A stretch of 64,000 nucleotides of DNA from Romanomermis culicivorax. Its lineage: Eukaryota > Nematoda > Enoplea > Mermithida > Mermithidae. Location of the stretch: assembly GCA_963922205.1 (NCBI GenBank), contig CAWUHX010000084.1:1114975-1178974 (forward strand), written 5' to 3'. The position numbers and the translations under genes were made by a program. This document shows, piece by piece, positions 7,241 to 45,700 of this stretch; position 1 is the first letter of the stretch, and every line of letters starts with the position of its first letter. The notes under the pieces are model-generated. The model searched no databases, was not told the origin of the DNA, and saw only the letters and a list, made by a program, of their open reading frames with translations.

Positions 7241-7447
7241 CCAGAAATATTTATGTCCGAGGAGATATGAGGTTTTAGGTGAGGCAAAATGGCCTGTAAA
7301 CTTGCTGTCATGGTGAGATGTGATTACATCATTGATTTGTGATTTCCGAATATATAATTTTGGTATCTTGTCGACTATATGAAATAGGAAATAGGACTGT
7401 GAATTTGAGCATGGTAGGGGGATGTTTTTGGGTAAGTTTGGTTAGGA

Positions 7448-7990: not shown

Positions 7991-7991
7991 G

Positions 7992-8792: not shown

Positions 8793-9720
8793 TCAACTTC
8801 TGCTTGAATGAGCTGCTTTTTTTTGGAGATGTCCAGAAAAGATGTTTGGGAATGGGTTTGGAACCATTTGTGTCAATGTTGTGGGAGAAAGTGTCATGCG
8901 ACCCAGGTCCATTTTGGAGTTAGCATATAGGGTGGGGTATTTAGATAAGAATCGTAGGAGTTGATTTTTCTCTGCTTCAGTCAGGTTGCTTGGGGTTAAA
9001 TTGGCATTCTCTTTTAACCATGTGAAAGTATCAAAGCAGTTTGGCTTGCTTGGAGCAGGAAGGGGTAGTTGGGTAGAGGAGTTTGCTTTTGGTATAAAAC
9101 ACAAAACAGCGCCAATGCATGTGCCAGGATAAAGGGTCTGGGGGGTGTCACGTGTGTTTAAAACTGAAATGCGGATAAGATTATTTTGATTCTCTGAAAT
9201 GGAAGCAGCGAAATGAACTTTAGAGTTTTGTCTGGCTTTTGGGGTAAATTTGAGTTGGTTGATGTGTAGGTATGATTTGGGTAAGGGTATGGTAAATTTG
9301 GTAATGGTGCACGGTGGTAGTTCCAATTTCTCATCCAAATAGGTTCCACCACAGGTCGACAGGGGGTTGTATTCTAGGCCTTCACAAGTGAGTATGACAT
9401 CGCCAAATTTTACTTGGGACTCTTGGTTGTTGATGGTATATTCAGAAAATCCACTCAGGAAATTTTTCCCCAGGCGTACATCTGCTGTGCAATCTTTTTG
9501 GACATGTACCATGATTGTTTCTTGTATGGATTGGGCCATTACTGTCACAAGGGTTGTTCCTATGAAGTGGATGGGAAGGTTGTTTGCTGCTTTTGCTTGA
9601 ACTAGCAGGGGCTTCATGTCTAGTTCTAGGGCTTTAGCAATATGGGAATCAATGAGGAAGCACACAGCACCAGTGTTAATCATGCCTTTAGTGAATAGCC
9701 TCCCATTCAGTGTAATTGGG
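8793..9720 (-). pseudogene. Decayed retropepsin-type protease and PR-RT linker
   Basis: The frame starting near 9683 has I-N-T-G-A where the intact relative has V-D-T-G-A, so the catalytic Asp is replaced by Asn. The flap-side motif V-R-L-G-K-N-F-L-S-G-F follows at the expected distance. The rest is the linker leading into RT, matching the intact element at 39130-39600. Only one protease domain is present: the 9720-9876 interval reads through stops and shows no DTG motif. The first protease of the intact element is therefore missing here. Confidence 0.7.
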
Positions 9721-9875
9721 ATATGGGGGGGGGTATGTTTCTCAAGTACGGCTGGTGGGGGGTTATTTGAAATGGATTGGTGTATCTGGTTTATAAGTTC
9801 AATTGCAGGAGTCCTTGGTGTATCTATGTCAACAATGATGTATTTCTGTTGAGTTTATGCTCCATGACGATTTGC

Positions 9876-10226
9876 TTATTCTAGGAGGGCATGACCACAT
9901 GAGGGAGGGATGGTGTTGGGTAACCACATACTGTGTAAAGGCAGTTTGTATGTGTGTTCACTGGCCATGTGGTGTTTAGGGTAATGGAAATATTTGCGCA
10001 AAACAAGGAAGGAGTAGAAGATACCAGCTAGGACAACAATGATAATGGCTAGGTTGATGAGTATTTGCAAGGGCCCCTTTAGTAAGTTATTTAACCCGTC
10101 TGTGAGGCTTTGGGTGGTGCCTGTTATAACATGTTCTATGCCTCGACCAGTGCTAGAAAGTGTGTTGCCCATTGCTTGACCACTGTTTGAGATCACGGTA
10201 TACACTGTATCAGAATTAAGTGACAT
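9876..10226 (-). pseudogene. Decayed Env transmembrane segment
   Basis: The frame encodes an Env membrane-proximal region (H-V-I-T-G-T-T-Q-S-L-x-x-G-L, parallel to [14 protein letters not shown] in the intact copy). A long hydrophobic run (about residues 52-74) and a short basic tail follow. It is separated from the Env ectodomain at 10287-11504 by a frame break. Confidence 0.7.
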
Positions 10227-10286
10227 TTGGGCAGTGTAATTAACTAGTTTGTCAACAATGCTTTTGAGGGTGTGGGTTTTGTATAT

Positions 10287-11504
10287 TTATTGCTTCAAGA
10301 AGAGCAAGTTTGTTGATATTGTTGCAAGTTGGTCATGGAAGATTGGTGGTGTATTGAAGTGGAAAAGGGAGAAATTTTGATTCCATACTATTTCTAAGGG
10401 AAGATTGGTCACATGTGGGGATCCAGTTTCACTGATCCATCGGGTATTTTGTTTGTATAGGGCGACATGCATGTGATGGCAGTTGACAGTTTGGGAGAAA
10501 GCGGTCAAATCATTTCCTCCAGGCTTTGAGAACATAATGTCTGTCCCTACAAGGATAGGTAGGAGTTTGTAACAGGTCCCATTGATTTTGTGATTGTAAA
10601 AGATTTTTGATGTGTTTACATGTTTAAAGGGCCAGATTGTGAGGGCATCCCCTGTGAATTCAGCAATCATGTCTGTCCTTTGTAAAAATGTGCATGCTAC
10701 AAGTGTTGCATCAAGGCGCAAGATTTGCCACACTAAGTCAAGATGATGTTGAGCTTGCCTGCATAACTCATTCCATACGTTTTTGAAATTCTGAATTTCA
10801 AACTCTTGAATTTTGTTTGCTAGGTAATTTAGTTTTGCATATATAGATTCGAAATCATCAAAGTCGTATAATGTGGTTTTAGTTTCATTAATTTGTGGGG
10901 TTAAAAAGGCATTCTGGTGCCGTGTCCTTTTGTCTAACTGTACAATAATACCTTGTTCGGTCAGGACACTGTCTTTGGTTTCGGGACAGTTGGGGTTCCG
11001 AAAGAGGGCATTTTTGATAGAGAATGCTCCTTGCAGTTCCTTGATGATCATGTATGTTTTTTTCAGTTTTATGGAATAGGTGTTCTTATATTCAAAGGGG
11101 CATAGGCTTTCAAATGTGGTCTCATTCCAGATAATGGCTCCGTCAGCTGTTACACAATGACCTGATATTGGTTTGCATGAACCCAGGTCACCTAATGTAC
11201 CTGTCATTGATTTTCCATCCCATGATGCAACTTGACCAGTTTCTACGATGACATTAGTAATGGACATGCAATGGTCAGTACAACACCATGCATATTCTGC
11301 GCTTAGCAAGTTGTTGGTGGACCCAAATCCCGGTTTTGTTTCATACAGTTTTTGACTATTATGCTCTTTGTCTATGACAATTGCCTTGCAAACATGTGGG
11401 GTTAGATTTTCCATTTCAGTTTGGTCGAAAACAATGCCTTTTGACCCAAAAAAATCCAGTGTTGGTACAAATTTTCCTTTTGCGAATACTACATTTGTAT
11501 GCAT
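10287..11504 (-). pseudogene. Decayed Env ectodomain
   Basis: A 405-codon stretch homologous to the Env of the intact element. Conserved landmarks include the W-C-C-x-D-x-C box, [15 protein letters not shown], the L-C-R-x-A-Q-x-x-L-D-L-x-W-Q-L-L-R-type helix and [10 protein letters not shown]. Its N-terminus lies in the overlapping gag frame (11416-12720), so one frameshift near 11420-11500 separates the signal-peptide part from the main body. It is placed upstream of protease and RT, confirming the env-before-pol order. I cannot assign this glycoprotein to a fusion class from sequence alone. Confidence 0.75.
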
Positions 11505-12720
11505 CTGTTATGTGGGGTTTAGTGGAAGGGATATAAATTTTTCCGCATGTTTGTATGGGTTTGTGGATTGTAGAAGGGGGCATGCACGATACCGTTTTTG
11601 GTATGCTGACTGAATGACTGCTCAATGAGGTTCCACACAGCTGAAACTGGGCATGACAAGATGATGGAATTATTATACAAAACAAAATGCAACAAAGAAA
11701 CCAACAGAAAGTTTCATTGGGGATGACATGTTGTTTGTTGGCCGTTGGAGCGATTGTATGGGCGTCGCATTGGTGTGTTGTGTGATTCTCTGGTGGGGTT
11801 GGTTGGGTTGCTGCCTGGACAGTTTTTAGAATTTGAGAAGTTTGGTTGCATGATTGGGTCGGATTGTTCTTACTTTTTGGGGTGGGAAGGAGAGTTTTAC
11901 GGGGGTGAAATTTATATGGTTCGTTCCTGAGACCATGGAGTAGCGAGAGAATGTTGCCCCCTTTTTTGTGTGGTAGTTCCAAAGTAATGGATGAGGGGCA
12001 TGGGCGTTTGGGGGGTATCTTGTAGTCCAGCAGTAGGGTGGGCAACGGTTTTGGAATGGCGTCAGTTTTGGGAGGCGAGGGTGGCGACATATTACACCAA
12101 TCGGGTATGGCGAGGCCAAGGACATATTCCTCATCATTGCGTTGGTGGTAAGCGGGCATGATGGTTCCTAAAGTATGCTGGGGGCCGCTATGTATAGTGG
12201 GCAATGTGGGATAGAGGGCTGGGTCATCCATGTCCATTTGTGGTTGGGGTTGTCTATCTTCAATGCAGTTTTGTACATTACAACTCTGTTGGTTGGGGCA
12301 ATACCTGCTTGTGTGGCCTCTTTGTTTACAGACAAAACACTGAACGTTAGAATAACTTTTAGATATGCAGTGGTCAGATCTATGGCCTGTTTCGTAGCAA
12401 TGAATACATCGGCTCTTGCAGTCTAGGGTAGTATGATTGTTGTGAAAACAGATTTCACATGATTTTCGTGTTCCCGATAAATTACAATTTGGAGCTAAAT
12501 GACCAACTTGTCCGCATTGAAAACATGTAGGCTGCCTGAAACTGTTATTGTTATTCTGTGGCGAGGGTTGTGAGCTTTGTTTGATCTGTAATTGTAAGTC
12601 CTTTACTTGTTGTTCTAACTTATGCAAAAGTCCCTGTTGGTCAGTGTTGTTTGTTAATGAAAAGATGGGTTCGGGTTTCTGGGGTATGAATGGTGAGAAC
12701 AAACCTCCAATTAGAAACAC
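11416..12720 (-). pseudogene. 5'-truncated gag nucleocapsid fused in frame to the Env N-terminus
   Basis: A 434-codon frame. Residues about 30-50 form a Q/K-rich coiled coil. Four perfect C-x2-C-x4-H-x4-C zinc knuckles follow at about 66-79, 88-101, 105-118 and 128-141, compared with one perfect knuckle plus one near-match in the intact element. A proline-rich linker leads to a hydrophobic signal-peptide-like segment (W-F-L-C-C-I-L-F-C-I-I-I) ending in S-C-H-A, then A-Q-F-Q-L-C-G, matching A-Q-Y-Q-F-C-G in the intact Env. The capsid part of gag is absent: element homology stops at about 12760. Gag and Env share one frame here as in the intact copy. Confidence 0.75.
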
Positions 12721-25335: not shown

Positions 25336-28300
25336 GTGAGAGTGTTTGCCAATTTTCCACTTGTACTATCAGTAGATGCTTTAGTTGAATGATTTTGGCA
25401 GTTATCGAATAGAATCGCAGTAATGATTTAGAATGGTGACAGAGAATGCTCGTCTATCACGACTAAAGTGAATTCATATTAGTATAAGTGTGCCCCAACT
25501 AGCCGTCAATCCTCGTCTGCAAGTTACTTTATGTAAATGGCATCGAAGTACTTTTAATCTTATTAGCAATACACGTTTGACCCATTTTCTACTGTTTTAA
25601 TGTTCTATATTTTTGTTTGTTTCCTAATTTTCTATATTTTTTCTATTTTCTCCTAGAGATGTAATTATTCATGACGATCAAACTAAAAATTATAGATTAT
25701 TCGAAAAGCGGATAAATTTTACACCATATTCACCGTTTGAAATTATATTTGAATTTGGATAAATTTGAATTAAATATTAAAATTCATTCTTAGTTTGAAC
25801 TGATGGAATGGAGCATTTTTAGTCATTCAATGAAATGTTACTGCATTTCATTATTTAACAAGTATTCTAATGGAAAAAACTATTCATAAACTTCAGCGTG
25901 AAACTCGTTGATGTGACGAACGAATTTTTCCGAATGAGTCTTCCATTAAATATTTCTCCAAAGCTACTCTTTTCTCGTCATATTGAAGATTCTCATACAG
26001 AAAATGTGAACACGTAAAAAATTCCAACGAAAACAAAAATTTTTCATAAAAAAGAGAAGATAAGAATTATTATAAGTTGCACGAGTTAAGGAAATTTGCG
26101 CAACCGTCAGTGGAATAAATGAGTACTAATTTGGGACAGAAAAAGAATATACTTGCTTGAATTGTTGTCAAGCTAGAAAAAGAGGTGGATTAGATTCTTG
26201 AGAATTTGGGTGAAAATTTAAAAAATCCATCTTTGTAATATTGGATTTTCATTCTTTTGCATTAAAAAGTTTTCCATGTCTGTGAGCCCAATTCATATTC
26301 CCCTTAGCATTACATCAACTACAGTGAAATTTTTCTGAATGAAAATCATATGCATTTATGCTGAAGGCAGATTTCGCTCAAATGTGGCGAAATGGTAACC
26401 TAGAAAATCGAAACTGGTTATCCCTCAGCCAACATCTTCTGATCAGAAAACATGATTTTTACCCACAAAAGAATTTGTGACCCACAACATACAAACTGCA
26501 ACTTGCCAATTTCTAACTCAACCCACCCAAACCCGACCTTCAGGCTGCAGGTTGGATCAATACCCACCCCCTTATATCTATAAACTGATGCATGTTTGAT
26601 TTCATATGAAATAAAGTTGTATGGCACTCACTATTCACCAATTACTCATTTGTATCTCTGTCGAACGTTATGGGCAACCTCACTCTGCTTGTGCCATGGA
26701 ATTTTAATGTGTTATAGCCATTTCTGATCAACACCTATGTGTTGACTTGTATAACACATCGAACAAAAAAGTATCCATATAGCACCAGTTGAATGAAAAT
26801 TCAATATTTGTAGGGCAATGTTTCATGTCAATCTTATTTTTACATTTCCGACTTTTTCTTATCTGCACAATTTTAATGCTTTGAATTGGTTCACATAATT
26901 AATTTAGTTCTAAGAAGACTTTGTGCTGTAACTTTTTCTCTAAGAAAACGGAGTTGGACTTTCTGTCTCAATTTTCCGCGCATTATTCCTGTTTCATTGA
27001 CACTAAATTTAGTAATAAACTTCAATGCAATTGGAAGTACAGGGTACGTACCTGCCCAGAGTTTTGAAATTGAAAATTTTTTCGTGTAGGAGACAATTTT
27101 TGGCCAACTTTTTTGGACATGTGTCTCAAAAAACGCCAGAAAACCAGGAACCGCCCCCTGTACCCCCCTTATTTTGGAGCTGCATATGTATGGTTGGAAA
27201 GTGTATTGATGCAGAATATACTTTTTCACAGAAATGGAAAATTTTTTAATGGGAAAGAATGGAAATTAAATTTTAGAAAACAGGATTTTCGAAACTCTCA
27301 CCCAAGTTCTCAAAAATCTTGTCCAGCCCTTTTTCTGCAACTATCTTAGCAGGTACATCCCCCTTCTCTGCCCCAGCGGGGCATTTCCAACAAACTAGTC
27401 CATCCCTTTTTAGTGGATCTTCCTTAACCAAACATATAAACCTTCATTGATCTCTTTTGTCTACTTCATGGGTCACCCCGAGTTACACCTCAGATTGATA
27501 CCCCTTACATTACTTTTGCCTAGAGCTTCACACGACAAAAATTTCGTACCCAGGTACCCATTTATTCATTACCCAGGTATCCGAATTACCCGGGTATACC
27601 CGGGTACATGTTAAAATGAGTTGTAATGTTAATGTACATATATAATATTACACAGATACACCGTGAATTCGAGACATAAAACAAATGTTCATAAAATTTA
27701 TTGATAAATCTATTTTTCAATCAATAACATTCACAAAAATGTATCAACCGGTAGGCGAGAATATAATACTACTATTATTTTATCTAACACTGACAAAAAG
27801 AGCTTACCAGTAGAAGATGGTAGAGTGAATTGTGGTGACTAATAAGATGGGCTGTGTGTTGAGTGGTGAAAGTCGAATAGAATGATGCATTACACACACT
27901 CTGTAGTCCCTACTACATAATATTTTTCAACACTTGTGTTGAAACACTCACTGGTTGTGTTGTTGTATACAATAGGCTGCATAGGTATATATTGCGAATA
28001 TAATGCTAGAGATGACGATTGATACACATTATCGACGCACCTACACTGCAAAATACTACACATCACATCACGACAGCTCAATATTATTGACGAGACAATG
28101 CAAAATTTGCATACCCCTATTCTCAAGACCACCCGGGTATACCCGTCGGGTACCCGGTGTGAAGCTCTACTTTTGCCCTTTTCCATATCTACAATAAAAA
28201 AGGGAAAAGAACATGATTCTCTAACCTGGTTCCGATGAAATCTGTCACGTGCCGCTCAATTCTCCAACGTCACGTGATTCCGATCATGCCGACATTTTGT

Positions 28301-30712
28301 TAATTTTCATGTTTTGTTTATTACTCGATCATGCTTTTGTTTATTTCATTTTTACACATGCATTTTACGTTCGTTTTTATATTTTTCATGCATTTCTATG
28401 TTTCGTTTTGTTGTATTTTTATTTCTTTACAAACGCGGGCTACAGTAGGCCCTTTAGCTAAAAACTTCCGCCAGTCGTGCTCCACGAGCACATGGCTATT
28501 TTTGGTGCGCTCACGCACCTCTTATCATCAAAAATTAGCGTCGTTTTTGTTACGCAAAACGACTAGCTAAGAAGTTTTAGCTAAAGACGTTCATATGCTT
28601 AGCATAGGCACTGCAGCCGGCCTCAGTGCTAAACGCATGTGAATGAAAAAATGTCTATGTGCTCATAGGCATCTTCTGCATCGCGTCTAGCTGCAGAAGT
28701 TAGCTTGAGCGCCGAGAAACTCCGCCCAAGCTGCAGCTGTAGCCAAACATGTCCTTAAAAGGACATGTTTCTTTAGTTTTTCGCTCATTCTTGGGTTCAC
28801 CAAGCTTTCGTCCAGTTGTCACTCCGCGTCCGCCGCCTTCTCGTCAAATTTGCATAATTTTGTTATATACCTGTGCATCCGCCGCCTTACTATCAATAAA
28901 TTTGCATAAATTTACCCGTGTTCACTGCGTCCGCCGCTTAACGTCCACAGTACCCCCGCTGCCCATCAGTGCCAGGTGTCCGACCGCCCCGGTTCGTGAA
29001 TTAAACGTTGGAGTTTCGCCTCCCGCTCGCTCCCGCTCCCTCCCGCTCACCGCCGCTCGCCGCCGCTCGCCGCCTAGGACGTTTGAGGATCGCATCCCCC
29101 GCTCCCAGTGCCAGAAGACCGAAAGCATCCAGGGACTTGCCGCCCGTTGCGTCGTAATCGCTTGAGAAACAGGACTAGGTGAGTCTTCTCAGGGGATTGT
29201 TGTTATTTGTGGGTTATTTGTTGGGAAATCCTTCCTGAGTCGGTTTCCCAAAGTCTCCACAGATAAGTAGGGCCTCCACCACTCAGGTTCGGGCAAAAAG
29301 GGGCTGTCTGGTTCATAATCGGGCCCCATAATTTAGGTCATTTTACGGGTGACCCTGTCCCCACTCTCACTGAGTAGGACTCGGGGATTGTCGCACCTAG
29401 CCTGGCCGCGTTGTCCATTACCCTACAGCAAGACCCCAAGGACAACCCAAAAGAACCAACTATAGACCTCTCTCTATAGCCACCCATTGCCAGGTTAGGC
29501 CCCAACGCCATTTGGGGAATCCTGGGGAAAATGCCAGTATCCATCAGGAGTCACAGCCTATTACTCACTGTAATAGGATCAATCTGATATGGTTCACCAT
29601 CAATGTGACGTCTAAAACACGGTATCACCTGATGAGATACCCAAACCTCCCCAGCTCTTCCAAATCCACATGTCATACACGTGACATGGATGGCGCAATA
29701 TGTGACATGGCGAGGCTGGAAAATCGACCTTAAGTCTGGCACTCGCCCTTAAGTGTAAAACTTTACCCTTGGGTCGGATCTACCCCCAGGTCGGGCCAAC
29801 TCCCATTTTTAAGTCGGACAAGCCCCCTTAAAATTGGGCACTAGCCATCCAATAAGTCGGAGACCCCCCCAAATTCGGGTTTACTGCCTAATGGGTCGGG
29901 AATGCCCCTTATTTCGGATTAACGCTCCTGTAGGTCGGATACCCCCACCTCACGTCGCGTGTTATTACTGTAAGTCGGAAATTTTTCCCGTACCACCGAG
30001 AGTTATTACTGTAGGTCGGGAATTTATCCCTGAACATCAAATTTAATTACTGTAAGACGGGATTTGCCCTTACGAGTGATCTAAATGTGATCTATATGTG
30101 TAAATAACTATCTCATGCGTGTGTATTACCCCTATGAGCAATAAATCCCCTCTGAGTCGAGTTATTTATCCCCAGAGTCGCGTTATTTGTCCCAGAGTTG
30201 AGTTATATATCGAGTATTCTGTATTTCTCCTCTGATTCATTCTGTACATTCATACTTAATCTGTGTTGTAAACTGCCTTATCTGTTTTCTTTTCCCTTAT
30301 TCCCCCCCTCTTCCCCTAATCCTGGGTGGTATACTGTAGCCCTCCAGGTGGGTGCCATTACAGTACGCCTGTGCCCACTCCCGTACTGTAACTACAGTAT
30401 ACCCATACGCGGGTACTGGTATCACAGCTGTAGGGGTTTACGGCCTCTCCTGACTGTTGGTGGTCCTTGACCCCATGATACAGTACACCCTCCCCGTATG
30501 ATTCTGGACGTCATACGTGGCTGCGATCTGTTACTTGTGTACAGTCTTTTTTGTATGTCGGCGGAAACTGTCGGAACTGCTCACTTTTCCGGCCCCAAAA
30601 ACACTTTTACACCGACTGTTTACACCTTTAACACGCGTATGCCCAAATCCCGTATTCCCCGTCTTCGGTTCTTTTCCTTTCCCTTTTCCTTTCTCGGTCA
30701 GCTGAGCGGTGT

Positions 30713-30764
<52 letters not shown>

Positions 30765-33700
30765 CGGATGCCACCGCTACAGTATGACACCCTTACATAA
30801 GTTTCTCTTTTCCACATTTCTACTTACTGTAAGGTCTGTTTCTTCTACTTTCCGGTTGTTGCATCTAGACCATAGACTTTACGGGTCATGTTCTTTGACG
30901 TCAGCAACAACAACGTTACGGGTTGTTGTTGTTGTGTGGTTCAGCCTCACGGATGCAACCACTAACGTCTGCAACAGCCGCTTCACTTGCTGTTGCTTTA
31001 AGGGGTGGGTAGCCCTCCGGGTTCTACCCCTGACGTCAGCAACCGACACTACGTGTTGTTGTTCAAGTTAACACTCCAGCAGTAATGACTTCTGACGTCT
31101 GCAACAGGTGAAGCCAACGTTGTTGTGACAGGTTCGGCTGGTTCTCTGCACCCCATCTGTGACGTCAGCAATGGTGACGCACCGTGTCACTATTCGAAGA
31201 TGTGCAGGTCTTACGGGTGCCACATCTGACGTCTGCAACAACTGCATCTCATGTCATTGACCAAAGGTATCAGACCCTCGGTTCCACCTTTTGACGTCAG
31301 CAACGGCACCATCACGTGTTGCTGTATACCGATAGCTGGCTTCAGGGCCCTATTGCTGACGTCAGCAATGACAATGTATCATGCTCTCGCAGCAGGAATT
31401 GAGGTTACATGATCCTATTTCTGACGTCTGCAACGGTAACATTACGTGCTACTGCAGGGGTTTGCTGGCCTTAGGCACTCACCCCTGGCGTCTGCAACTG
31501 CGACGTGATACTTGAATACTCTTATCCCAGGCACCTGCAGTCAGCACCAAGGTTGTGTGTTGGTCCATACCCCCTACCTTCTGACGTCCGCACCAGGTTA
31601 CTGTCGGCCCTATGAGTATTCCACTTGAGTTGTAGGTGGTCGCTGGCGCATGGTCCCATCACCTACCTCTCTTGTTCAAGGGTTTGTGTGTGTCTGGGGG
31701 CTGATGCCTGGGAAACATCAGTCCACATACATACACCACCTGAGATGCTCACTAGCCTACGTACTGATCAGGTTGTCCGCCCGGGTAGCGGCACTGTTGA
31801 TCAGTATGTGGCTGTTTTCAAGCTTTAACTGCAGGTTTGAACGAGTTACACTCGGCCTCAGCTGGGTTGGTTGCTTGACTCGTGCAGACGATAGGCATTT
31901 GCAGTCGGTACTGCCTGTGTCTGACGTCTGCAAGGGTTCGGCAATCTTCTTGTAAATTTCTTATCTAAATTCACTCATTTTCTTTCATCTCATTGAGCTG
32001 TCATACATAGATCTTCTTTAGTGTCCCCGCCGTAGTGGTTCCCAAGGGACCGCGGCACAGCCTCCGGTTGGGCCTAGAGTGTATAGGACCCCCTGTCATA
32101 TTTCTCTCACTCGAACGCCTTTGTTAACTGGCTTAACGATGCCCGCGCTAGAGTCGCCACTGACCCAGAGTCCGCCTCCGCGGTCTACCCTTTATTAGTC
32201 ATGTAAATAATAGGCACCGTTGAGTCCGCCTCAGCGAAGGTATTGAGTACGCCTCGATACATACTTTACACTCATATTCAATCAGGGACACCTTGTACCC
32301 GTGATCCCTTAGATGTTTTCGGGTGCGCCCTCAAAACATCCAGAGATTTCATTTTAACTGACTGAGTGTGTCAGAATAGCACCCTTGGTACCCGTGCTCC
32401 TTCCCTCTTCTACTGTGTGACCTGCGAACCTCACTTCATCTCAGTGATCGGCAAACCCGGCCACCAGCTGTGTATAATACTCCTGGAGAGTGTCCGTTCT
32501 GTTCGGAATGCGGGCTCCCGTTTCGAACACGGCTGTAAGTTATTTGCGAATGTCGTCCAGCACGGAACCTCCTGTATAGTCCATCTCACTATGCAGAGAT
32601 CGCAATCGCTCCTGGCGAGTGAGGCCCGTTGCGTAACTGCGCGACCCCTTTGCGTAACTGGGTTTGTAAATTAGTTTTGTCCCTATTTATTGCTCCCTTT
32701 TAAGTTCACTTTCAGTTGACCCCATCCTTTTCCACCTCATGCCACTTTATGCGCTACTCCTGGTGAGTAGGATCTTGCCGGCTACGAGTCCGCCTCGCCC
32801 CAAGGTTTGTAAACTAGTACAGCGGTCGAACTTCCAGGAAAAATCCCTCCTGAGCGGGTTTATCCGTCACCCTATTTCTCGGCAGGAAAAACCGCCTCTT
32901 CTCTTCTTTCTACATGATCTTCTGTCCTCTTCACCTATTCTAATTGCCGGGTCCAGGCCCCAAACTCTACGTTCTGGTCGGGATCGATTCCCCATATCTC
33001 AGGCCAAGCCTCTGTCCATCACGGGCGACCAGATAAATTCCCTTCTGCGTCACCCTGATGTACTCTGATCTTACATCTTATAATCCTATTCCATTCTAGC
33101 TCCCTTTCCGTGGTCGCTAGTCTTAAGCTAAGTCAATTTACGTCTTAAACGCCGTCGCACACGCGTTTTCCCGAATTCACGCGCTCTTTCGCCGCGAATT
33201 CAAAAGTAGTACTCACTTTCATTTTACACAATAGAGACACCCCGTCGTTCCTGCCGTCTCAGTACCCAGCCTGTACAGACCAGTGAGCCGCTCTCTATTC
33301 AATTTGACTTAATTGCTTCACGGGCAAGGACGTCTGTTCTAACCACCTTACGGGAAAACGAACCCTCGGACATGAAGTCGGAAACTGATCTCCCTTCACA
33401 GATCGAGAACAAGGTCCAGGCAGCATTTGAGAATGCTCTTGGACCCCTCAACCAAAAGTTAGAGGCCATGAATGGTCGGAGGCACCCTCCCGTGTCCAGC
33501 TTTATGGCCCCTCCCACCTTCTCCGGTGCTTTTGGTGAGTCTATCACCGATTTTATGTCGCATCTTACTCGTTTCTTTACACTCCAGGGTGTAAGCGAAA
33601 CGGATCATGCGTATAAAATCGCCTTTCTGGAGTCATGCCTCACGGGTCCTGCTCTCGCCTCCTACCGGGACTTTAGCAGCAGCACTCCAATACCTACCCG

Positions 33701-36700
33701 CTACGAAGAGTTTACGGCTTTTCTACGGAGAGATTTTCCGGTAGGGCGCGACTCTGATCTGCATCAGCAGCTGATCCAAGATCGACTGCAGAAGCCGACG
33801 GAGTCCGCGATAGTCTACCTTGAGCACCTCAAGAGACTATCCAGGGTAGCGTATCCAGATCTCGCGACGGATGTCCGAGATTCTATCATCAAACCTATCT
33901 TTCTGCGGGGACTGAAGCCGGTCCTCCGAGATAGTATCAAGTTTAGGGAGTTCACGACTCTTGAAGAGACACTCAAGGCAGCCTGTTACGCAGAATCCCA
34001 AATCTTTCGGGACGAGATCCGGTACACTGCTCCATCTAACGCCGTTTTCTCTTCAGAACCTAAACACGCCGGATATAATCCCGATATGCCTAACAGAAGC
34101 GCAAACGGTCGTCAGAGCAACGCTCCAACGTCGTCATCCTCCGCCGATGAGGTTCGCCGCTTGAAACAGGAAATGGCCAGGCTCACGGCCCACGTAGTGA
34201 AGCTCACGGCCCAGCAACGTGCACCCGCGCCAATCCAACAGACGCCGCCTCCACAGCCGTCGACACCAAATCAGTCCGCCGGGCGACGCTCGTCGGGAGC
34301 ACACCTTCAAACGTGCTCCTTCCACGGACTGTGTACACATAGCGACGCCGACTGCCGGGCCCAGCGTCCCACCGGTGCCGCCCCCGGTAACAACGCCGCT
34401 AACGGTGGTCGCTGTTATTTTTGCCGTACACGTGCCCACCCCACGGACCGATGTGACAGGCCATGCCCTCATTGTCGTCAAGTGCGAGTGCACCGATCAA
34501 CTGCCTGTCCGCAGCGCAATCCGGCAAACACGGGTGAGAATGTCTACCAAGATACTGGTTATTCTTCCCAGGGGACAAATGTGTATCAGCAAAGAAATGG
34601 TTATCACCCTCCCAACGGGACAGGAAACCATTATCGGCAGCCCATACGCCGCAACAACGCCGTTGGGGCTACCGATAGCCCTCCTCATCCAGATCCTCTT
34701 GACCTGGATGATGAGGCACTTGCTGAACACCTGACAGATTCTTCACAACAGTGTTATCCTGTCTGCGTAATCAGTACTGGATTTTCAGTGGTCCAAGCAG
34801 CCCAGGTACCCGTACCGATGAACGTATCGGACATACCGCTGCCACCACCACCACCAAAGTATGTGATGCCGGTCACTCTGGACCCCTCAACGACACCGCA
34901 GTTTGTTGGCCACGCTAACATCCTCGCATCGTATCGCATTCCTAAACTCAAGACTGCCGAGCCAGCTCCAGCCGCGAATACGACGTCTTCGGCGCCACCG
35001 GCCCGCACCGTCCCTCCAGGACCACCGCCTTCGATCCCCACGGATTCGGCTACGGAAGTCCTCGACCAGGTCGAGCCCATGAATTTGTCAGGTATACTAC
35101 CTTCTTCTTCAGGTGATCCTAGAGTAGGAACCAGGAATCTATCTCAGTCCACGACTCTATTGATTTCTCGTTCACAGCGCCATCGCCCGTCCAAGACGCG
35201 ATGTTGGCCATCTGGTCAGTCGACCTGGCCAAGAAATACCCGCATTTGCCGTGGACTCTCCTCAACGAGCCATCAAATGTCGAAGCGCTCACGGCCGCCG
35301 ACGTCGTGCTTGCAGCACCCGTCTCGATGCGCCTATTACGACCCGACGTCGCCCGCCGGGCACTCGAGTTCATTGCCAATGGGACTATCACCATCTCGCC
35401 CGTCGAGAAGTTCTTATTGGACGGGGAGCCATCCTCGCCTTCAGTCGACGCCGTCCGCCGAGCAGTCGAACAGGCCAGTCGGATCCTCCTGCCTGCTGCC
35501 GCCGCTACATCACCGGCAGCAGCACCACCTGTTGCCGCGACATCGCCAACTAAGATGGACATTACTGCTTCCTCGCCCCCGGCCAAGGAACCCGCAAATG
35601 ATCCTACACCGCCGGCAACAGCCCAGGCCAAATCGCCGGCACCAGCCCAAACGACATCTCCGACCGCCGCGACCAAGTCGCCCGTCGTCGAACCCATGGC
35701 CGTCGACGAGACCTTACGTCCAGTTAATGAGGATGTCAGCATTGTCGAAACATCACCGTTCCCAACGGCAGTCAACCCACGGTCGCCGAAAGTCGGTACC
35801 CTTCGGGAAATCCTCCCCAGCGGTGAATTGGTCCTCGATTTCCCCGACCAGGAACCAATCTCGTCCGACAGCGACGAAGAAGAAATCTGACACTGCCCCT
35901 CAGGCCAGATTTGTGAAATTGAGTGAACACTTACAAATTACGTTTGTACAGTCGTTTTTGACAATAAAATTGACCTTGGTAGCATCACTGTTTCTAGGGG
36001 TGAGTTTGTCAGCACCGGCGGCTCAGTATCAATTTTGCGGTCTCTCAAGAAGCGGACATCCACTTGAGTTACCCCAGCGTGTAGAGTGTAAACCACCGCA
36101 ATCTTCATGGAGCCCGCGGCGCATGAATGTTACGGTGTATGTCCCTAGCTCAGACCCGATTACAACCACAGCGTGGAAATGCACATTGCGCTCCCGCAAA
36201 GTCTGCACCAACACTGGTTTCTTCGGCTCTAGGGGCATCACTGCAGACGTCATCACCACTCAGCACTTAGCGCCTGCGGCATGCACGCTAGCACATCGCA
36301 CTAAAATGTTTGGTTCACAAAAACTTGTCGGCATTCGCCCTGGCTTTTATAGCACAAACCAAACATTGGAAGTGATGTACGAATGGTGCTGCAGCGACGT
36401 CTGCAAGACAGTGACTAACCTCTTCATCGAGGAGGGACAAGTCGCTTCGTGGGACGGCACTACGGCCCTAAGCACCTTAGGCGATGTAGGTGGATGCAGT
36501 CCCACTGCAGGCCAGTGCACTACCCTAGACGGGGTCATTGTCTGGCCTGCACAAAACTTCACGGCGCGGTGTCATTATCACCCCAAGGGAAATTACACTG
36601 CGTCCATGTCAGGGAACCACGTCATCATCGATGATCTGCAGGTTGCCCTCAAGATCCCGGGAAACTCCCGTGTCTTCCAACTGTGCCCAGAACTACGTTC

Positions 36701-39700
36701 CACCACAGTCCGGACGGATCAGGGTCTTCTCCTTCGCATCCACGGGAGATACAATTTGACCCAAAACATGTTCAGAGTGGCAACGGACAGCCGTCCCGAT
36801 CCTGTCAATGCCAAGCTGAACTATCTGGCTCAGCAGATCAAGGAGTCGGAAATTAACGGTTTCCGGTTCACGTGGCTTGAGCTTTGCTCTCACGCTCAAC
36901 GCTATCTTGATCTGACTTGGCAGCTGCTTCGCTTCGACCCTACCCTGGGTGCCCGGGCATTCCTCCAGAGGAATGACCTGACGGCGGAATTCACAGGCGA
37001 TGCGCTGACAATATGGCCGTGTCAGAAGGTCAACGCCACCTACGTTTACCATTCGTACCGGGTGGGGAACGTTTGCTACAAGTACTTACCTGTGCAGGTT
37101 GGCGGCACCATCTACTTCGCCACCCCCGGTGGTCCGGATCTCATTAAATCTAGCCCAATTGTGCCGTGTCATCACCACTTTGCAGGGATTTTCCGAAATC
37201 GCTCGGGCTGGTTTACTGAGTCTGGCGCGGTCCATGTGAGCCACATCCCACTGGAACTCTTCTGGAAGCAGCGCTTCAACATCACTCACTTTGAGGCACC
37301 AGCGCTCTTCCATGACCAGTTGGCGATGACCCCTTCAAACTTTGCCTTCTTTAAACAGTACGTTTACAAGACTGAGCAAATTGAAGCGGTACTCAACCGG
37401 CTGGTAAATTTTACCGCTGGTCTATCCCTGCAACCAGACGCCATCTACCAGGCCTTTGCAGGGGTAGGAACCGACATCAAGGCCTCTCTGGAAGGTGTCG
37501 GTTTGGCAGCAAACCATGTTATTACGGGTCAAGAGCACACCCTCGCCCAGGGCTTGCATGCTGTCCTGAGCGGGCCGGTCCAGTTGATCTTTAACATCCT
37601 AATCACCCTGACAGTGCTGATCGGTGCAGGATACCTTGCCTATCTTGGTGTATCTTATTATCTCAGCTACCGTCTGCGGAGCAAACAGGTCAGGTTTGTT
37701 AGCCGTTTCTCCCCGTTGGGTCTTTACCGCAAAGTCCAACGCTGGATCGGTTTTCACTACGTGCAAAACGATGTACCCTCCCAGCTTGACCGAATCACAC
37801 CGTGCTTTGTCGTGCTGCTGGACACCAAGGAAACTCCTGCTTTCCTTGATACGGGTTGCCCACGCACTATCATTAGCCAACGCCTTCATAAAGCCTTGGC
37901 TAAAGAAAGTCCGAAGGCGGTCATGGCGTTCCAGCAACATCACGACTTTAACCCATTGATGAGCATCAATGGTAAAGCCGTTCATACCATCCTTTCGGGA
38001 CCATATGAAATCATGTTGCCCGGAAACCGCCAGCCGAACACACGGATCGATGTACATCTCCATGTGTGCAAGACTACGTCTCCCTTCTGGGCACCTGTTG
38101 ACCTCATACTCGGACTGGACTTCTTAGAACAGTTCAAGAACATTATGTTTGACTACCAACGTAATGTTTGTCGGCTGGACGCGGTAGAATTACCCCTCCT
38201 GCTGACCACGCCGGAGATTGACCAGATCGACCCCTGGTGGGAGAACACCCGTGCTCTCTCGCGAAACTCACACAGGTCGGGATCACGATCGCGGTCCAGG
38301 GCTTCGTCCATCTCTCGGCCACACTCACGGGCCTCCTCAGTTGCCTCATCACGTGGGTCAACTAGGGGATCCCGGGCCTCTTCTAGACGGGCAAGTCGTC
38401 ATCTGTCGACCTTGCACGGGTCAGGTTGCCCTCGACCTCCGCCTGGAACCTCTCCAGTTACACTAGAGAAGGGCCGATACCGTGAGCCCAGTGATTCAGA
38501 TGCTCCGACATCACCCGTGCCAAACGCGCCTCCGCTATCGGACACCGAGGTTGAATCACTAGGAGCTACTCAGAGTCCGAAGGATCACTCAGACCACATA
38601 CTAACGGTACAGGATGAGTCCACCCTTCTGAATGACCCGGAACCCTCCGTCGGATACGCTCTAGTAGGCCTCCTACGTCGTACGGGACTGCCGATTCCAA
38701 AGCGGTCCGGTAAGACCAAACATGTTAGTGGTGCCACCACACCTGATTCCGGTCATGTGGTCACGGCTTTTTACCCAAATGATATTCGGACACCCCATAT
38801 CAAAGTTCTCCTCAACAACTGGGTAGAAGCCAAGGCACTGGTCGACACAGGAGCTGTTTTCTCACTCTTGGACCACAAGTTAGCGGCCCAGCTGCCCAAC
38901 TTGTCACTATCACCAACCAGGGCACGCCCTATCGCAGCCAACGGGTCCCCGATCCCACTGCTAGGAGCAGCCTACATCACAGTTACAGTGGCTGATGTCT
39001 CTGAACGGATTCAGGTCCAAATACAGGAGAACTGTTCAGCTGAACTGGTCCTCGGAACCAATTTCCTCGGCCGGTTCAATTGTGTCAGTTTGAACTGGGA
39101 GAAATCTTTCCTCCAGTTCAAAGAGAGTAGAATCCCCTGTGACGGTCTCATCCACAGCCCACCTTCTGCCCGCGGCGCTTTGCCCCTGAAGGACTTGGTG
39201 ATTCTAGAGCCTCGCTCCATGACACGATTCACTGTACCTGTCCCACCAATCTATACGAACGTGCCTGAGGTGGCCTTCTTTCCGAAGAACCTCACCGGGT
39301 CTCAACGACACGTATATTTTGCAGGAAGCGTCAGTACCGTGACCAACGGTCACATACCGCTTCAGGTGGTTAACCCGAGTACTCACTCCGTGGTTCTCTA
39401 CCCGCACACGACCATCGGTCATGTGCAAATGCATAGTGAGCCCTCACGGGAATCACCGGTCGACTCAGACACCGTCCTCGACCGTCAGTGGGTCGAGGCC
39501 AATGCTGTGATCTCACCGGACATCTCCCCCCGGGACCGGGCAGCCTTACTCGATCTACTGGTTGCATACACCGACCTTTATGCTCTTGATGAAAAGGACA
39601 CAGGTTCCACTGATCTCGTCCAGCACGAAATCAGCACGGGTGATGCCCGCCCAGTCCGCCGTTTTCCTTACCGGTCCTCACCTAAGGAAAAGGATCTCAT

Positions 39701-42700
39701 CATGCAAGAGGTCAAGGCGCTCCAGGAGAAAGGTATTATTCGGCCCAGCACGTCTCCGTGGGCTACTAATACTGTCCTGGTGCGCAAGAAAAACGGTTCT
39801 CACCGTATGTGTGTTGACTTTCGTGGTCTTAACGAGGTCACGAAAAAGGATGTCTACCCTCTCCCACGGATAGATGACATCCTCGACACACTCAAGGGTA
39901 TGAAGTATTTCACTACCCTTGACCAGGCTAACGCTTATTGGTCAATCCCGATTGCCGAGGCCGATAAGGAAAAGACGGCTTTTAATACGCCTATTGGACT
40001 ATTCGAATTCAATTATTTACCTTTCGGTTTATGCAACGCGCCAGGGACATTCCAACGCCTTATGGACCTCCTCCTTACTGGAATCCAATGGCGCACGGTT
40101 CTGACTTATCTCGACGACATTTTGGTGTTCGGGAACTCTCACACCCAAATGCTTGAGCGCCTGGCAGATGTGTTCGCCCGTCTTCGCCAGGGTGGAATGA
40201 AGCTCAGACTGAGCAAGTGCAAATTTTCGCACTCGGAGGTAGAGTACCTAGGCTATCGCATCTCACAGAGCGGCCTAGAACCTGACCAAGCCAAGCTGGC
40301 CGCCGTCCAAAACCTACCCATTCCACAAAACGCCAAAGACATCAAGTCCTTCCTAGGCCTCGTGTCTTACTACAGGCGTTTCATCCCTGGTTGTGCCCGG
40401 CTCAGCGAGCCACTCACCAAGCTCTTACGGAAGGAAACTACTTTCCAGTGGTCAAAACCTCAGCAGGAGGCGTTCGATGAACTCCGCCGCCTGCTGACCA
40501 ACCCTCCTATCCTGCGCCATCCGGACTTTTCGAAATCCTTTATCCTTCAAACTGATGCAAGTATTTCGGGGATAGGAGCGGTTCTTAGCCAGTTAGACGA
40601 AAATGGATACGACCATCCTGTCGCGTACGCCAGCCGAGGGTTAACAGCGGCCGAGAAAAACTACTCCATTACAGAACTGGAGACTCTCGCTGTTGTCCAT
40701 TTCGTCAAGCACTTTCGACCATACCTCTTCCAGCACGAGGTGGTCGTTCAGACTGACCATACCGCGGTCAAAGCAGTGTTGGAGAAGCCTAACCCCTCTG
40801 CTCGGATCGCTCGGTGGGGACTCGCGCTCGCCGAATTCAAACTGACAATTCGGCCGCGAAAAGGTCAGTCTAATGGTAATGCTGACGCATTATCACGCCT
40901 GCCGGATCCTAACTCCCTCACCGGTCAGAGTATTGATGATACTCCCCTTTACAGACCTGAGGGGCACGTTATGATGATCACCGATGGTGCGCAGCACCTG
41001 GCGAGATCAAGGACCTTGACCGATGGTGTGCAGCACCTGGCGCGTTCAAGTAATTCAGCACCGATCGCTGTTGGCGCGGAGCGCCCGGTACGATCAGAGT
41101 CTTATGCCGAGATATCCGTCGGTGCGCAGCACCCCGACCTTTTCGCTGCTCAGCTGGAGGATCCGGAATTAGCCGACATCATTCGCTCTCTTAAGCCTCT
41201 GGGCGACCAGAATGATGTGCGAGGCTACCATCTGTTGGATAACGTCCTTCAGAAATGGACAGGCGAGTCCAATAAGATCGTCATACCCAGGTCCATGGTT
41301 ACTACCATTATCCGGGCTCATCACGATGACATCTTAGCCGGACATTTCGGTGCTAAACGTACTGCGCGGCTCATTGCTCGCAGATACCACTGGCCCTCCC
41401 TCAGTCGGGATGTCAAGTCCTTCTGTCAGCGGTGTGATCTTTGCCAACGGAATAAGCCCGCTCGACAGAAAACCACTGCGACCCTGAAACCTATCACCAT
41501 CACGGGACCGTTTCACCGGGTAGGTGTCGACTGCATGGGACCAATGACCACTAGCGAAGCTGGCAACCGTTTCATCGTAGTCTTTATCGACTACTTTACG
41601 AAATGGGTCGAGGCTTTCGCTACTCCGGACATCACTGCGAACACCATAGCCCGGCTGTTTGTAACGCAAATTGTCTGCCGGCACGGGGCACCGCAGATCC
41701 TTCAGTCAGATCGTGGCACTGATTTCACATCAAAACTGATGACTGAAATCACTGCGATCTGCGCAACGAAGAAAATCCACTCTACCGCCTATCACCCGAT
41801 GACCAACGGCGAAGTGGAAAGAGCTAATCAGACGCTAGCCACACGGCTACGTATGTATGTTCATCAAGGACATACTGATTGGGATGAACACCTACCATAC
41901 GCTGTGTTTGCCGTCAATATCAGCATGAATGAGTCAACAGGGTACTCGCCCTTTGAACTCATGTACGGTCGCACACCCATGCTCCCTGTTGACGCCGCGC
42001 TCTCATTCAACCCTCCGGCCCATATCATTAATGTTTCCTCATATGATATGGAGGTCAAACGTCATTTCACGAATGCGTTAACCTTAATCCAGAGTCGGAT
42101 TGAGAAAGCACAGGAAGCCTATGCACGGTCGTACGACCGGAGGGCACATGATGTCTCCTACAAAGTAGGGGATCAGGTGCTTAAACTGCGCACCTCCAGC
42201 AAACGTGGACTCACTCCTAAATTGCTGCCCATCTACGATGGACCCTACCTTGTAACAAGTGTGGCATATCCCAATGTCACACTTCGTCTCGAGATGGATC
42301 AGGAAGACACTGTACATGTCAACCAGCTTCGACTTTACGTGTCCCCTGAACAACCGAGTGAAGCAGAGGATACACCTCCCACTTCACAGGCAACGGATTC
42401 GGCACCCTTATTGTATCCATCAATAAGCCGGGACTTTACACCGAATCTAATTGACCCACATCTTGATGCAGAGGTCCCCGACCCGTAACTCAGGATGCAC
42501 TCTCTTCATTGTCCCCGCTTACGGACGAGGACGTCCTTTTTCGAAGGACCGCCGTGCCCCTCACGAAGTATCCACTCTTGTCCATGCTGGATCTTAGTGG
42601 ATAGAAGAGAGCGTTCAGCAACCTAAGCGTCACGCCTTAGGCGCATCCTCACGCGATAGCCTACACCTCTCAGGGTGCATCCCCTGCGATAGCCCGACAA

Positions 42701-45700
42701 TCTGTACCTCACTGGGCGCATCCTCTGCGATAGCCTACATCTTGCCCTGAAAATTTTTCTTTTCTGTGTTCTAGACCTTCGCACAGGATATTCAATGTCG
42801 GCAACTCCACGCATCAACGACCCCCGGTCACCATACCACCGGACAAATTACGATCAAAGAAGGCCTCATCCACCGACAACCCAACGGACCTATTCGACCA
42901 CTCTCGCCGTCACACCTTGGAATGCCCTACGACCACGGACACGCCGCATAAAACCTCACTACTGACCACTGCAAGGACGAGGACGCCCTTTTTCGAAGGA
43001 CCGCCGTGTCACGTGCCGCTCAATTCTCCAACGTCACGTGATTCCGATCATGCCGACATTTTGTTAATTTTCATGTTTTGTTTATTACTCGATCATGCTT
43101 TTGTTTATTTCATTTTTACACATGCATTTTACGTTCGTTTTTATATTTTTCATGCATTTCTATGTTTCGTTTTGTTGTATTTTTATTTCTTTACAAACGC
43201 GGGCTACAGTAGGCCCTTTAGCTAAAAACTTCCGCCAGTCGTGCTCCACGAGCACATGGCTATTTTTGGTGCGCTCACGCACCTCTTATCATCCAAAATT
43301 AGCGTCGTTTTTGTTACGCAAAACGACTAGCTAAGAAGTTTTAGCTAAAGACGTTCATATGCTTAGCATAGGCACTGCAGCCGGCCTCAGTGCTAAACGC
43401 ATGTGAATGAAAAAATGTCTATGTGCTCATAGGCATCTTCTGCATCGCGTCTAGCTGCAGAAGTTAGCTTGAGCGCCGAGAAACTCCGCCCAAGCTGCAG
43501 CTGTAGCCAAACATGTCCTTAAAAGGACATGTTTCTTTAGTTTTTCGCTCATTCTTGGGTTCACCAAGCTTTCGTCCAGTTGTCACTCCGCGTCCGCCGC
43601 CTTCTCGTCAAATTTGCATAATTTTGTTATATACCTGTGCGTCCGCCGCCTTACTATCAATAAATTTGCATAAATTTACCCGTGTTCACTGCGTCCGCCG
43701 CTTAACGTCCACAGTACCCCCGCTGCCCATCAGTGCCAGGTGTCCGACCGCCCCGGTTCGTGAATTAAACGTTGGAGTTTCGCCTCCCGCTCGCTCCCGC
43801 TCCCTCCCGCTCACCGCCGCTCGCCGCCGCTCGCCGCCTAGGACGTTTGAGGATCGCATCCCCCGCTCCCAGTGCCAGAAGACCGAAAGCATCCAGGGAC
43901 TTGCCGCCCGTTGCGTCGTAATCGCTTGAGAAACAGGACTAGGTGAGTCTTCTCAGGGGATTGTTGTTATTTGTGGGTTATTTGTTGGGAAATCCTTCCT
44001 GAGTCGGTTTCCCAAAGTCTCCACAGATAAGTAGGGCCTCCACCACTCAGGTTCGGGCAAAAAGGGGCTGTCTGGTTCATAATCGGGCCCCATAATTTAG
44101 GTCATTTTACGGGTGACCCTGTCCCCACTCTCACTGAGTAGGACTCGGGGATTGTCGCACCTAGCCTGGCCGCGTTGTCCATTACCCTACAGCAAGACCC
44201 CAAGGACAACCCAAAAGAACCAACTATAGACCTCTCTCTATAGCCACCCATTGCCAGGTTAGGCCCCAACGCCATTTGGGGAATCCTGGGGAAAATGCCA
44301 GTATCCATCAGGAGTCACAGCCTATTACTCACTGTAATAGGATCAATCTGATATGGTTCACCATCAATGTGACGTCTAAAACACGGTATCACCTGATGAG
44401 ATACCCAAACCTCCCCAGCTCTTCCAAATCCACATGTCATACACGTGACATGGATGGCGCAATATGTGACAAATCTATGAGATTAACGGAAACGCACGAT
44501 TACCAAATATTTAGGTCATTATGGCTTAGTGACCTGAATCATTAATTTTGGTAATTAAAGCCATTGTAGACGTAACACACTAAAGTTTTGAATTCAATCA
44601 TCTTCACGTCAGAGAAACAATAAAAAACCAATTTTAAATCTGCGAATTCTCACACTCTGTCAGAGTAACGGATGTGTAAACCTCATAGTTCTTAAAACAC
44701 GTTGTAAACAAGTCAACTATGGTCGAAAACTCCATTAAGCTTTCATTTCATTGCATTTTATTTTTTTGTTCATTTTTCTTCGACTAGTTGCAATTCGATA
44801 ATTTGCTTGAGTTCTGATAGACGGTCAATGCCTGCAGACGGCTGTTTTTCACTTGCGGACGGCTCGTCTCACTGCATCTATATTGTGGGTGACTGAGTCC
44901 CTCTGCGTCTTAATTGCGGAAATCTGCGTCTCACTTGCCCGTGGATGACTTTGCCTCGATTGCGGGTGACTGCGTCTCATTTCCGAACGCTTTTATATTG
45001 CTTGCAGATAGCTGCGTCTCAACTGTGGACGGCTGCATCCCACTTGTAAATGGCTGTGTCCGGCTGCAGCTCAGTTGTGGACGGCTATTTCTCACTTGCG
45101 GTCGGCTGCATGCTGCACCCTGCTCGCGGACGCATGCTTATCATTTGCGGGCTGCAGCCTCTCACTTGCGACGGCTCGTCTTACTAGCAGATAGTTACAT
45201 CTTACGTATTGATGGTTGCGTTTCACTTATGGACAGCTACGTCTCACTCCAGACCCCAGCTGCCCACTTGCGGATAGCCTCGCTCTGCTTGCGGACAGCT
45301 GCCTTCACTTGTAGGCGTCTGCGTCTCGCATACAGACGGATGCACAGTCCAACTATGCGAGGCTCCAATATTTTAAATAGGCGGCGCTCAGATAGTTCAC
45401 CTACAAGTGTATGCATGCAGTCATTTGGGAAGGAATGCATCATGCTTAGGAAAACCAGCAGAGAACAATAACAAAATTGTGGAATTTTGGGGTTTTTCGG
45501 GTCTCTGGACCATGGTATGACTGAATTGAGGCCATATTTTCAAAAGAGAAAAAGTGTAATTTGAAGGGCGCTGGGTAGTATCAAGCTCGAGGGTGCTACA
45601 CCCAATGTGGTGCATGCTGGAACTGGAATATTAAAACACGCTATTTTTTCACGTTTTTGGAGCCCCACCCAGAACGATTTGCGGATAGAGACCAAATGAT

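What the first reader, a model, noticed from the sequence alone, without database searches (positions are those of the whole stretch)
33372..42488. Retroelement with Env between Gag and Pol in a single 3038-codon frame
The intact element reads gag, signal peptide plus env plus TM anchor, protease, RT, RNase H, integrase without a stop. Known env-bearing LTR elements (errantiviruses, Tas/Cer-type nematode elements, vertebrate retroviruses) place env after pol, often with spliced expression. An internal signal peptide in the middle of a polyprotein also implies unusual topology: cytosolic Gag, secretory Env, cytosolic Pol. The order, landmarks and open frame are seen directly; that it is undescribed is my inference.
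Basis: partly seen in the sequence, partly recalled or inferred. Interest (0 to 1): 0.88.

Follow-up and report, generated by a model that had tools for sequence, protein, structure and literature searches.

The report
Retroelement with envelope inside its polyprotein
A recently inserted retrovirus-like element carries its membrane-fusion (envelope) protein in the middle of its protein chain, between the shell proteins and the enzymes, instead of at the end as in described relatives, and other elements in public sequence data share this layout.

Summary
A 16.2-kb LTR element (28243-44471; 1465-bp LTRs with 2 mismatches; 4-bp target duplication) has one open frame of 3038 codons reading Gag, signal peptide, Env, TM anchor, protease, RT, RNase H, integrase. 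The Env is a class III fusion glycoprotein: Pfam Monjiviricetes_fusion E 1.9e-14, and the predicted fold matches herpesvirus gB and negative-strand RNA virus glycoproteins. The layout is not a one-copy accident: a decayed second element in the window has the same order, and six complete public polyproteins (2499-2973 aa) have it in one frame.

Three corrections. About 255 codons between Gag and Env overlap a second ORF (35201-35890) that carries the codon-usage signal there. Two tandem proteases follow Env, shared with the sister element P0017. The topology is not paradoxical: charges and glycosylation sites fit a membrane-threaded polyprotein with Gag and Pol cytosolic, Env lumenal.

ICTV's Metaviridae profile places Env downstream of integrase; ten searches of open-access papers found no gag-env-pol element. 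I call it a new variant of a known kind: Metaviridae-like by pol, with an order I found undescribed. How Env is expressed is inferred, not shown; host unidentified.

The parts
28239..28242 (.). target site duplication AATC, left copy (right copy 44472-44475)
   Evidence: flanks read directly
28243..29707 (+). 5' LTR, 1465 bp, starts TGTCAC, ends GTGACA
   Evidence: 99.86% identical to 3' LTR, 2 internal mismatches
29708..29727 (+). probable tRNA primer binding site, begins TGG directly after the LTR; tRNA not identified
   Evidence: position and TGG start only
30897..31498 (+). leader array: 10 plus-strand copies of GACGTCWGCAAY (up to 1 mismatch), start-to-start spacing 62-68 bp
   Evidence: 17 matches in the whole window, both strands, up to 1 mismatch, against 0.77 expected; 10 of them form this array
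33372..42488 (+). single open frame, 3038 codons: Gag-Env-PR-PR-RT-RH-IN
33540..33986 (+). Gag capsid domain
   Evidence: Pfam Ty3_capsid E 2.8e-07
34413..34508 (+). two nucleocapsid zinc-knuckle-like motifs
   Evidence: pattern match only; no Pfam zinc-knuckle match in the window element
35201..35890 (+). overlapping ORF in another + frame, 229 aa from ATG; open from 35123; probable accessory protein, ends just before the Env signal peptide
   Evidence: codon-usage signal switches to this frame; no Pfam match; its ATG is the first after the acceptor-like site at 35096-35112
35096..35112 (+). candidate splice acceptor (pyrimidine tract + CAG)
   Evidence: sequence only
35940..36023 (+). internal signal peptide (aa about 857-884); last preceding Met is aa 788
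   Evidence: hydropathy and flanking charge
36024..37670 (+). Env: class III fusion glycoprotein ectodomain and TM anchor (TM core 37584-37628)
   Evidence: Pfam PF24664 E 1.9e-14; AlphaFold2 plus Foldseek/VIA matches to gB
37806..38180 (+). PR1: upstream retropepsin-like domain (DTG...LILGLDFL)
   Evidence: profile match to PR2 alignment, probability 96% alone and 99% together with the sister's copy; sister P0017 has two protease stretches in Pfam
38793..39086 (+). PR2: canonical retropepsin
   Evidence: Pfam gag-asp_proteas E 4.2e-11
39780..40262 (+). reverse transcriptase
   Evidence: Pfam RVT_1 split over two query pieces, E 3.9e-17 and 9e-11
40449..40838 (+). RNase H
   Evidence: Pfam RT_RNaseH_2 E 5.8e-37 and RT_RNaseH E 1.3e-36
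41283..41798 (+). integrase zinc-binding and core domains
   Evidence: Pfam Integrase_H2C2 E 4.1e-22, rve E 2.3e-08
43007..44471 (+). 3' LTR
6310..12720 (-). second, decayed element with the same order: zinc knuckles (ORF 11416-12720), signal peptide plus Env (about 11712-9981), PR-RT (9728-8439), RH (8438-7605), IN (7414-6310); no capsid match seen

Best explanation
It is a young copy of a Metaviridae (Ty3/gypsy)-like endogenous retrovirus from a lineage that carries a negative-strand-RNA-virus type class III fusion glycoprotein between nucleocapsid and protease, and that translates Gag, Env and Pol as one chain. Shown: the order, the open frame, the Env family and fold, and recurrence in related elements. 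Inferred mechanism: ribosomes make cytosolic Gag, then the internal signal peptide opens the translocon and Env is threaded into the ER. The TM anchor stops transfer and the protease-RT-RNase H-integrase part is made back in the cytosol. Signal peptidase would free Gag from Env, leaving Pol as Env's cytoplasmic tail until the element's proteases cut it, so that one membrane protein brings both fusogen and enzymes to the budding site.
For: Env family and fold. Same order in a decayed second element and in all 6 of the 11 Env-positive proteins that are complete. The Env and pol trees share the pairs window+P0017 and P0011+P0012 and are otherwise compatible. Topology in seven elements: net charge after the TM core +2 to +6 (7 of 7); before the signal-peptide core positive (6 of 7); after it 0 or -1 (6 of 7). 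Glycosylation sequons are denser between the two segments (54 in 3830 residues) than outside (121 in 15253), Fisher p 6e-4. The main frame through the Gag-Env junction is open more than chance allows given the overlapping ORF, 0.011. No Met lies close upstream of the signal peptide in the window element or in the second element. In the 302-960 aa size class only 2 Env relatives were found among 6171 candidates, neither a complete stand-alone Env. An Env-less relative inside the clade, P0023, keeps two hydrophobic segments 44 residues apart at the same place, the only one of 34 Env-less hits examined with two such segments upstream of RT.
Against: No RNA or protein data. The codon signal between Gag and Env sits in the other frame, and around the signal peptide itself (35772-36131) no frame scores well, so the junction may not be translated in the main frame most of the time. 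Relatives P0011, P0012 and P0013 have a Met near the signal peptide, which would allow internal initiation there. A consensus splice donor lies in the LTR (29177) and acceptor-like sites exist, so spliced Env mRNAs are possible. Equal amounts of Gag, Env and Pol would be unusual. P0023's two segments show no sequence similarity to the others. Searching for proteins of 990-3150 aa favours fused forms. P0047 breaks the charge pattern at the signal peptide, though its core was picked at 776 rather than 797. P0014 is Gag-Env without Pol.
Confidence: 0.6

Rival explanations
1. Env is normally made from a spliced mRNA, as in known retroviruses; the continuous frame is the genomic default (or a Gag-Pol form arises by splicing Env out), and the full chain is rare or never made.
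For: Consensus donor AGGTGAGT in the LTR and a pyrimidine-rich acceptor at 35096-35112. Cer1, a C. elegans Ty3/gypsy element, makes its CERV protein from a spliced mRNA (PMC10309623, abstract and passages).
Against: No ATG near the signal peptide in the main frame of the window element. The acceptor at 35096-35112 leads to the overlapping ORF's ATG instead. The frame is kept open across Gag-Env-Pol in 6 of 6 complete relatives. A donor of this kind is expected about 0.5 times in 16 kb (my estimate).
Confidence: 0.25
2. Gag really ends in the overlapping frame at 35890, reached by frameshift or splicing, and Env-Pol is a separate ORF; the main frame is open there by accident of a GC-rich stretch.
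For: Codon usage; the minus strand is open there too, 218 aa; the overlapping ORF stops just before the signal peptide.
Against: Chance of an open main frame 0.011 in synonymous shuffles. Relatives read Gag to Env in one frame. The second element's zinc knuckles and Env start share one ORF. No frameshift site was identified.
Confidence: 0.12
3. The Env block is a passenger or assembly artefact without function.
For: None found beyond the odd position.
Against: Same place in separate public sequences and in a second element of the window; conserved cysteines and intact frames.
Confidence: 0.03

Closest known systems
Metaviridae (Ty3/gypsy), including errantiviruses
   Same: LTRs, 4-bp target duplication, Ty3-type capsid match, PR-RT-RH-IN order; Ty3 Gag-Pol is the best solved-structure match of the mixed profile
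   Different: Env between nucleocapsid and protease, not downstream of integrase (PMC7879559); Env is class III; tandem proteases
Anakin (BEL/Pao element with a chuvirus glycoprotein in mosquitoes; PMC7642597, passages)
   Same: Captured glycoprotein of the negative-strand RNA virus type
   Different: BEL/Pao pol; the passages I read do not state the glycoprotein's position in Anakin, but put Env downstream of the polyprotein in Roo, Tas and Cer-7
Cer1 of C. elegans (PMC10309623, abstract and passages)
   Same: Ty3/gypsy element that carries an extra protein (CERV, from a spliced mRNA); here too an extra ORF, 35201-35890, is present
TelKA of bdelloid rotifers (PMC5408684, passages)
   Same: LTR element with an env-like glycoprotein from negative-strand RNA viruses
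   Different: Its env-like protein is described under ORF3, downstream of pol, and is most like class I fusion proteins of paramyxoviruses
Flavivirus-type polyprotein (recalled, not tested)
   Same: Works like it in topology: cytosolic capsid, signal peptide, lumenal glycoprotein, TM, cytosolic enzymes
   Different: No relation in sequence claimed; reverse-transcribing element

Membership tests
Metaviridae | LTRs and Ty3-type PR-RT-RH-IN order | tested here: met
Metaviridae | Env, where present, encoded downstream of integrase (PMC7879559) | tested here: not met
   Env at 36024-37670 precedes PR; profile text
Metaviridae | RT phylogeny inside Ty3/gypsy | tested here: inconclusive
   Env clade groups among Ty3-like proteins, but the sampling was chosen by me and held no named reference set or other family
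Errantivirus (gypsy-type) | Env after pol | tested here: not met
   no ORF of 200 aa or more between 42488 and the end of the window
Class III viral fusion glycoproteins (Monjiviricetes type) | Sequence profile match | tested here: met
   PF24664 E 1.9e-14, 53 bits against a cut-off of 27; also above cut-off in the Env-bearing relatives scanned
Class III viral fusion glycoproteins (Monjiviricetes type) | Fold | tested here: met
Class III viral fusion glycoproteins (Monjiviricetes type) | Fusion activity | not testable with these tools
   no experiment
Troyka | 3-bp target duplication and CG...CG termini, no Env (PMC12440569, parts 1-2 of 5) | tested here: not met
   4-bp AATC, TG...CA, Env present (paper)

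The most novel reading that the evidence does not exclude
A lineage of animal retroviruses that build particles from one membrane-threaded Gag-Env-Pol chain, in which Pol is made as the cytoplasmic tail of the fusogen, so one polyprotein delivers capsid, entry protein and enzymes. The membrane hairpin would be part of assembly itself, retained even when the fusogen ectodomain is lost (P0023), and an overlapping ORF in the Gag-Env linker would encode an accessory protein.
Probability: 0.4. Interest if true: 0.87.

Novelty: new variant of a known kind. Interest (0 to 1): 0.75.

Why it matters
The ICTV profile gives gag, pol, env as the order for env-bearing Metaviridae. A lineage with Env inside the polyprotein shows a different route from retrotransposon to retrovirus, and predicts that fusogen and enzymes can travel as one membrane protein. 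It also adds a capture of a negative-strand RNA virus-type fusion protein by a Ty3/gypsy-like lineage; one survey reported no clear evidence of such capture of Jingchuvirales glycoproteins by Gypsy elements (PMC10084718, passages).

Tried and rejected
Own-genome search (genome search, where own) for further copies did not complete: nine identical requests met a busy machine. Host and copy number therefore remain unknown.

Viral contigs (4 scans) and prokaryote genome contigs gave no relative.

PDB sequence search with the Env alone gave nothing below E 0.017. The profile was mixed (Env plus full-length relatives), so its hits speak for pol, not Env. Considered and dropped: Troyka (wrong termini), Cer1-type CERV as the Env block. 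The VIA rows shown are herpesvirus glycoproteins only, and Foldseek pre-selects them; other class III proteins are not excluded.

The RT-IN tree used 36 rows: the window, 7 Env relatives, 2 close rows without a detected Env (P0023, P0028) and 26 of the other Env-less hits chosen by me. P0010 was left out and P0013 is a long, unplaced branch. P0028 is a pol-only piece, so whether its element has an Env upstream is unknown. The P0023 control used only the 34 Env-less hits with 500-1600 aa before RT.

Paper searches: ten, open-access PMC only; most papers were seen as listings. One paper held a queried phrase ('gag-env fusion', PMC5290741; only its title and the start of its abstract were seen, which concern a vaccine-induced T-cell study).
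Full report
Boundaries. The element spans 28243-44471. Its LTRs are 1465 bp with two internal mismatches (28530, 28877), start TGTCAC and end GTGACA, and are flanked by AATC on both sides. So few differences imply a recent insertion. The 5' leader is 3664 bp long.

The frame and its domains. One search lists 33372-42488 as 3038 codons. Pfam (four pieces) gives Ty3_capsid in Gag (E 2.8e-07), Monjiviricetes_fusion in the Env block (E 1.9e-14), gag-asp_proteas (4.2e-11), RVT_1, RNase H (5.8e-37) and integrase domains, in that order. Hydropathy shows one strong segment just before the Env block and one at its end.

Not a one-copy event. On the minus strand of the same window a decayed element has zinc knuckles, a hydrophobic segment and the Env start in one ORF (11416-12720), Env 42% identical over 390 residues, then PR-RT, RH and IN; no capsid match was seen there. 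A 514-bp direct repeat of 74.5% identity (2102-2607 and 14434-14923) may be its old LTRs. Public proteins: (302-960 aa) found 2 Env relatives, (990-3150 aa) found 5, and (by pol; 120 of 6629 listed) added 4. BLAST found Env in 11 of the 125 proteins collected. Six are complete, and in all six the order is Gag, Env, PR, RT, RH, IN: P0011, P0012, P0013, P0017, P0047, P0081. P0013's Gag rests on a weak Ty3_capsid match (0.0011) and a BLAST match to the Gag part of P0014. P0010 and P0033 are Env-Pol pieces; P0014 is Gag-Env; P0008 and P0009 are Env fragments.

Trees. In the RT-IN tree (36 rows) seven Env rows and the close rows P0023 and P0028 form one group (support 100/99). P0013 falls outside on a long branch, so one origin is likely but not proved; the tree needs 4 changes of the Env label, of which starred branches force 3. 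P0028 is a pol-only piece whose upstream part is unknown. The Env tree recovers window+P0017 (93/91), P0011+P0012 (100/100), P0010+P0047 (100/100) and P0081 with P0011+P0012 (99/98). The first two pairs are also in the pol tree; P0010 was not in that tree, and P0081's place is unresolved there. P0023 reads Gag to PR in one frame without Env, but keeps two hydrophobic segments 44 residues apart between nucleocapsid and PR; no sequence similarity to other Envs was found. Among 34 Env-less hits with 500-1600 aa before RT it is the only one with two such segments. I read it as an ectodomain loss; that is inference.

Overlapping ORF. A codon-usage score trained on this element's Env and pol favours the main frame in most windows, Gag included, but between about 35172 and 35890 another + frame scores +0.08 to +0.16 per codon while the main frame scores -0.05 to -0.20. 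The main frame is also weak, without another frame standing out as strongly, in the zinc-knuckle stretch (34092-34691), around the signal peptide (35772-36131) and in a serine-arginine-rich stretch (38172-38531). The ORF from ATG 35201 to 35890 encodes 229 aa without Pfam match. Keeping its protein and shuffling synonymous codons, the main frame stays open in 1.1% of 20,000 shuffles (mean 2.9 stops); the reverse test (at most one stop in the other frame, mean 5.1) gives 1.8%. Both frames therefore appear to be kept. The first ATG after an acceptor-like site at 35096-35112 is the ORF's own.

Two proteases. PR1 (about 37806-38180) has DTG and ILG motifs. Profile comparison with an alignment of eight PR2 domains gives probability 96% for the window's copy alone and 99% for the sister P0017's copy alone. 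Pfam finds two protease stretches in P0017. Seven other relatives (P0010-P0013, P0033, P0047, P0081) showed no second DTG between Env and PR.

How it may work. In seven elements, net charge after the TM core is +2 to +6 (7 of 7), before the signal peptide core positive (6 of 7) and after it 0 or -1 (6 of 7). Sequons are denser between the two segments, 54 in 3830 against 121 in 15253 residues, p 6e-4; related rows are not independent, so the p-value is optimistic. This fits cytosolic Gag, lumenal Env, cytosolic Pol. The comparison with flavivirus polyproteins is recalled. In the window element the last Met before the signal peptide is aa 788, so internal initiation there is unlikely; P0011, P0012 and P0013 have a nearer Met.

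Known or not. ICTV's Metaviridae profile (PMC7879559, whole text) puts Env downstream of integrase. PMC7642597 (passages) places Env downstream of the polyprotein in Roo, Tas and Cer-7. PMC10084718 (passages) reports no clear capture of Jingchuvirales glycoprotein by Gypsy elements. PMC5408684 (passages) treats env-like proteins as ORF3, downstream of pol. PMC12440569 (parts 1-2 of 5) describes Troyka, which differs. The passages seen of PMC8672886, PMC11963269 and PMC10513252 held no such order. Ten searches found no gag-env-pol element; the library is open-access only.

Verdict. The finding is real, recurrent and, as far as searched, undescribed. I file it as Metaviridae-like by pol with one tested feature of the profile (Env position) not met, hence a new variant. 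Expression and topology are inferred.

Noticed in passing
30897-31498: Regular array of 10 plus-strand GACGTCWGCAAY sites, 62-68 bp apart, in the 5' leader; possibly a protein-binding array, as the gypsy insulator is (recalled).
   Followed up: partly
35201-35890: Overlapping 229-aa ORF with acidic C-terminus and no Pfam match; possible accessory protein.
   Followed up: partly
37806-38180: Second retropepsin upstream of the canonical one, shared with P0017.
   Followed up: yes
2102-2607 and 14434-14923: 74.5% identical direct repeats flanking the decayed minus-strand element, possibly its LTRs.
   Followed up: no
42523-42556 and 42975-43008: 34-bp repeat (97%) between the end of the ORF and the 3' LTR.
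   Followed up: no
P0011 500-555 and P0012 419-475 (proteins): RNA recognition motif (RRM_1) between the zinc knuckles and Env of two relatives.
   Followed up: no
60097-60168 (-) and 60258-60329 (+): Two tRNA-Ser genes on opposite strands.
   Followed up: no
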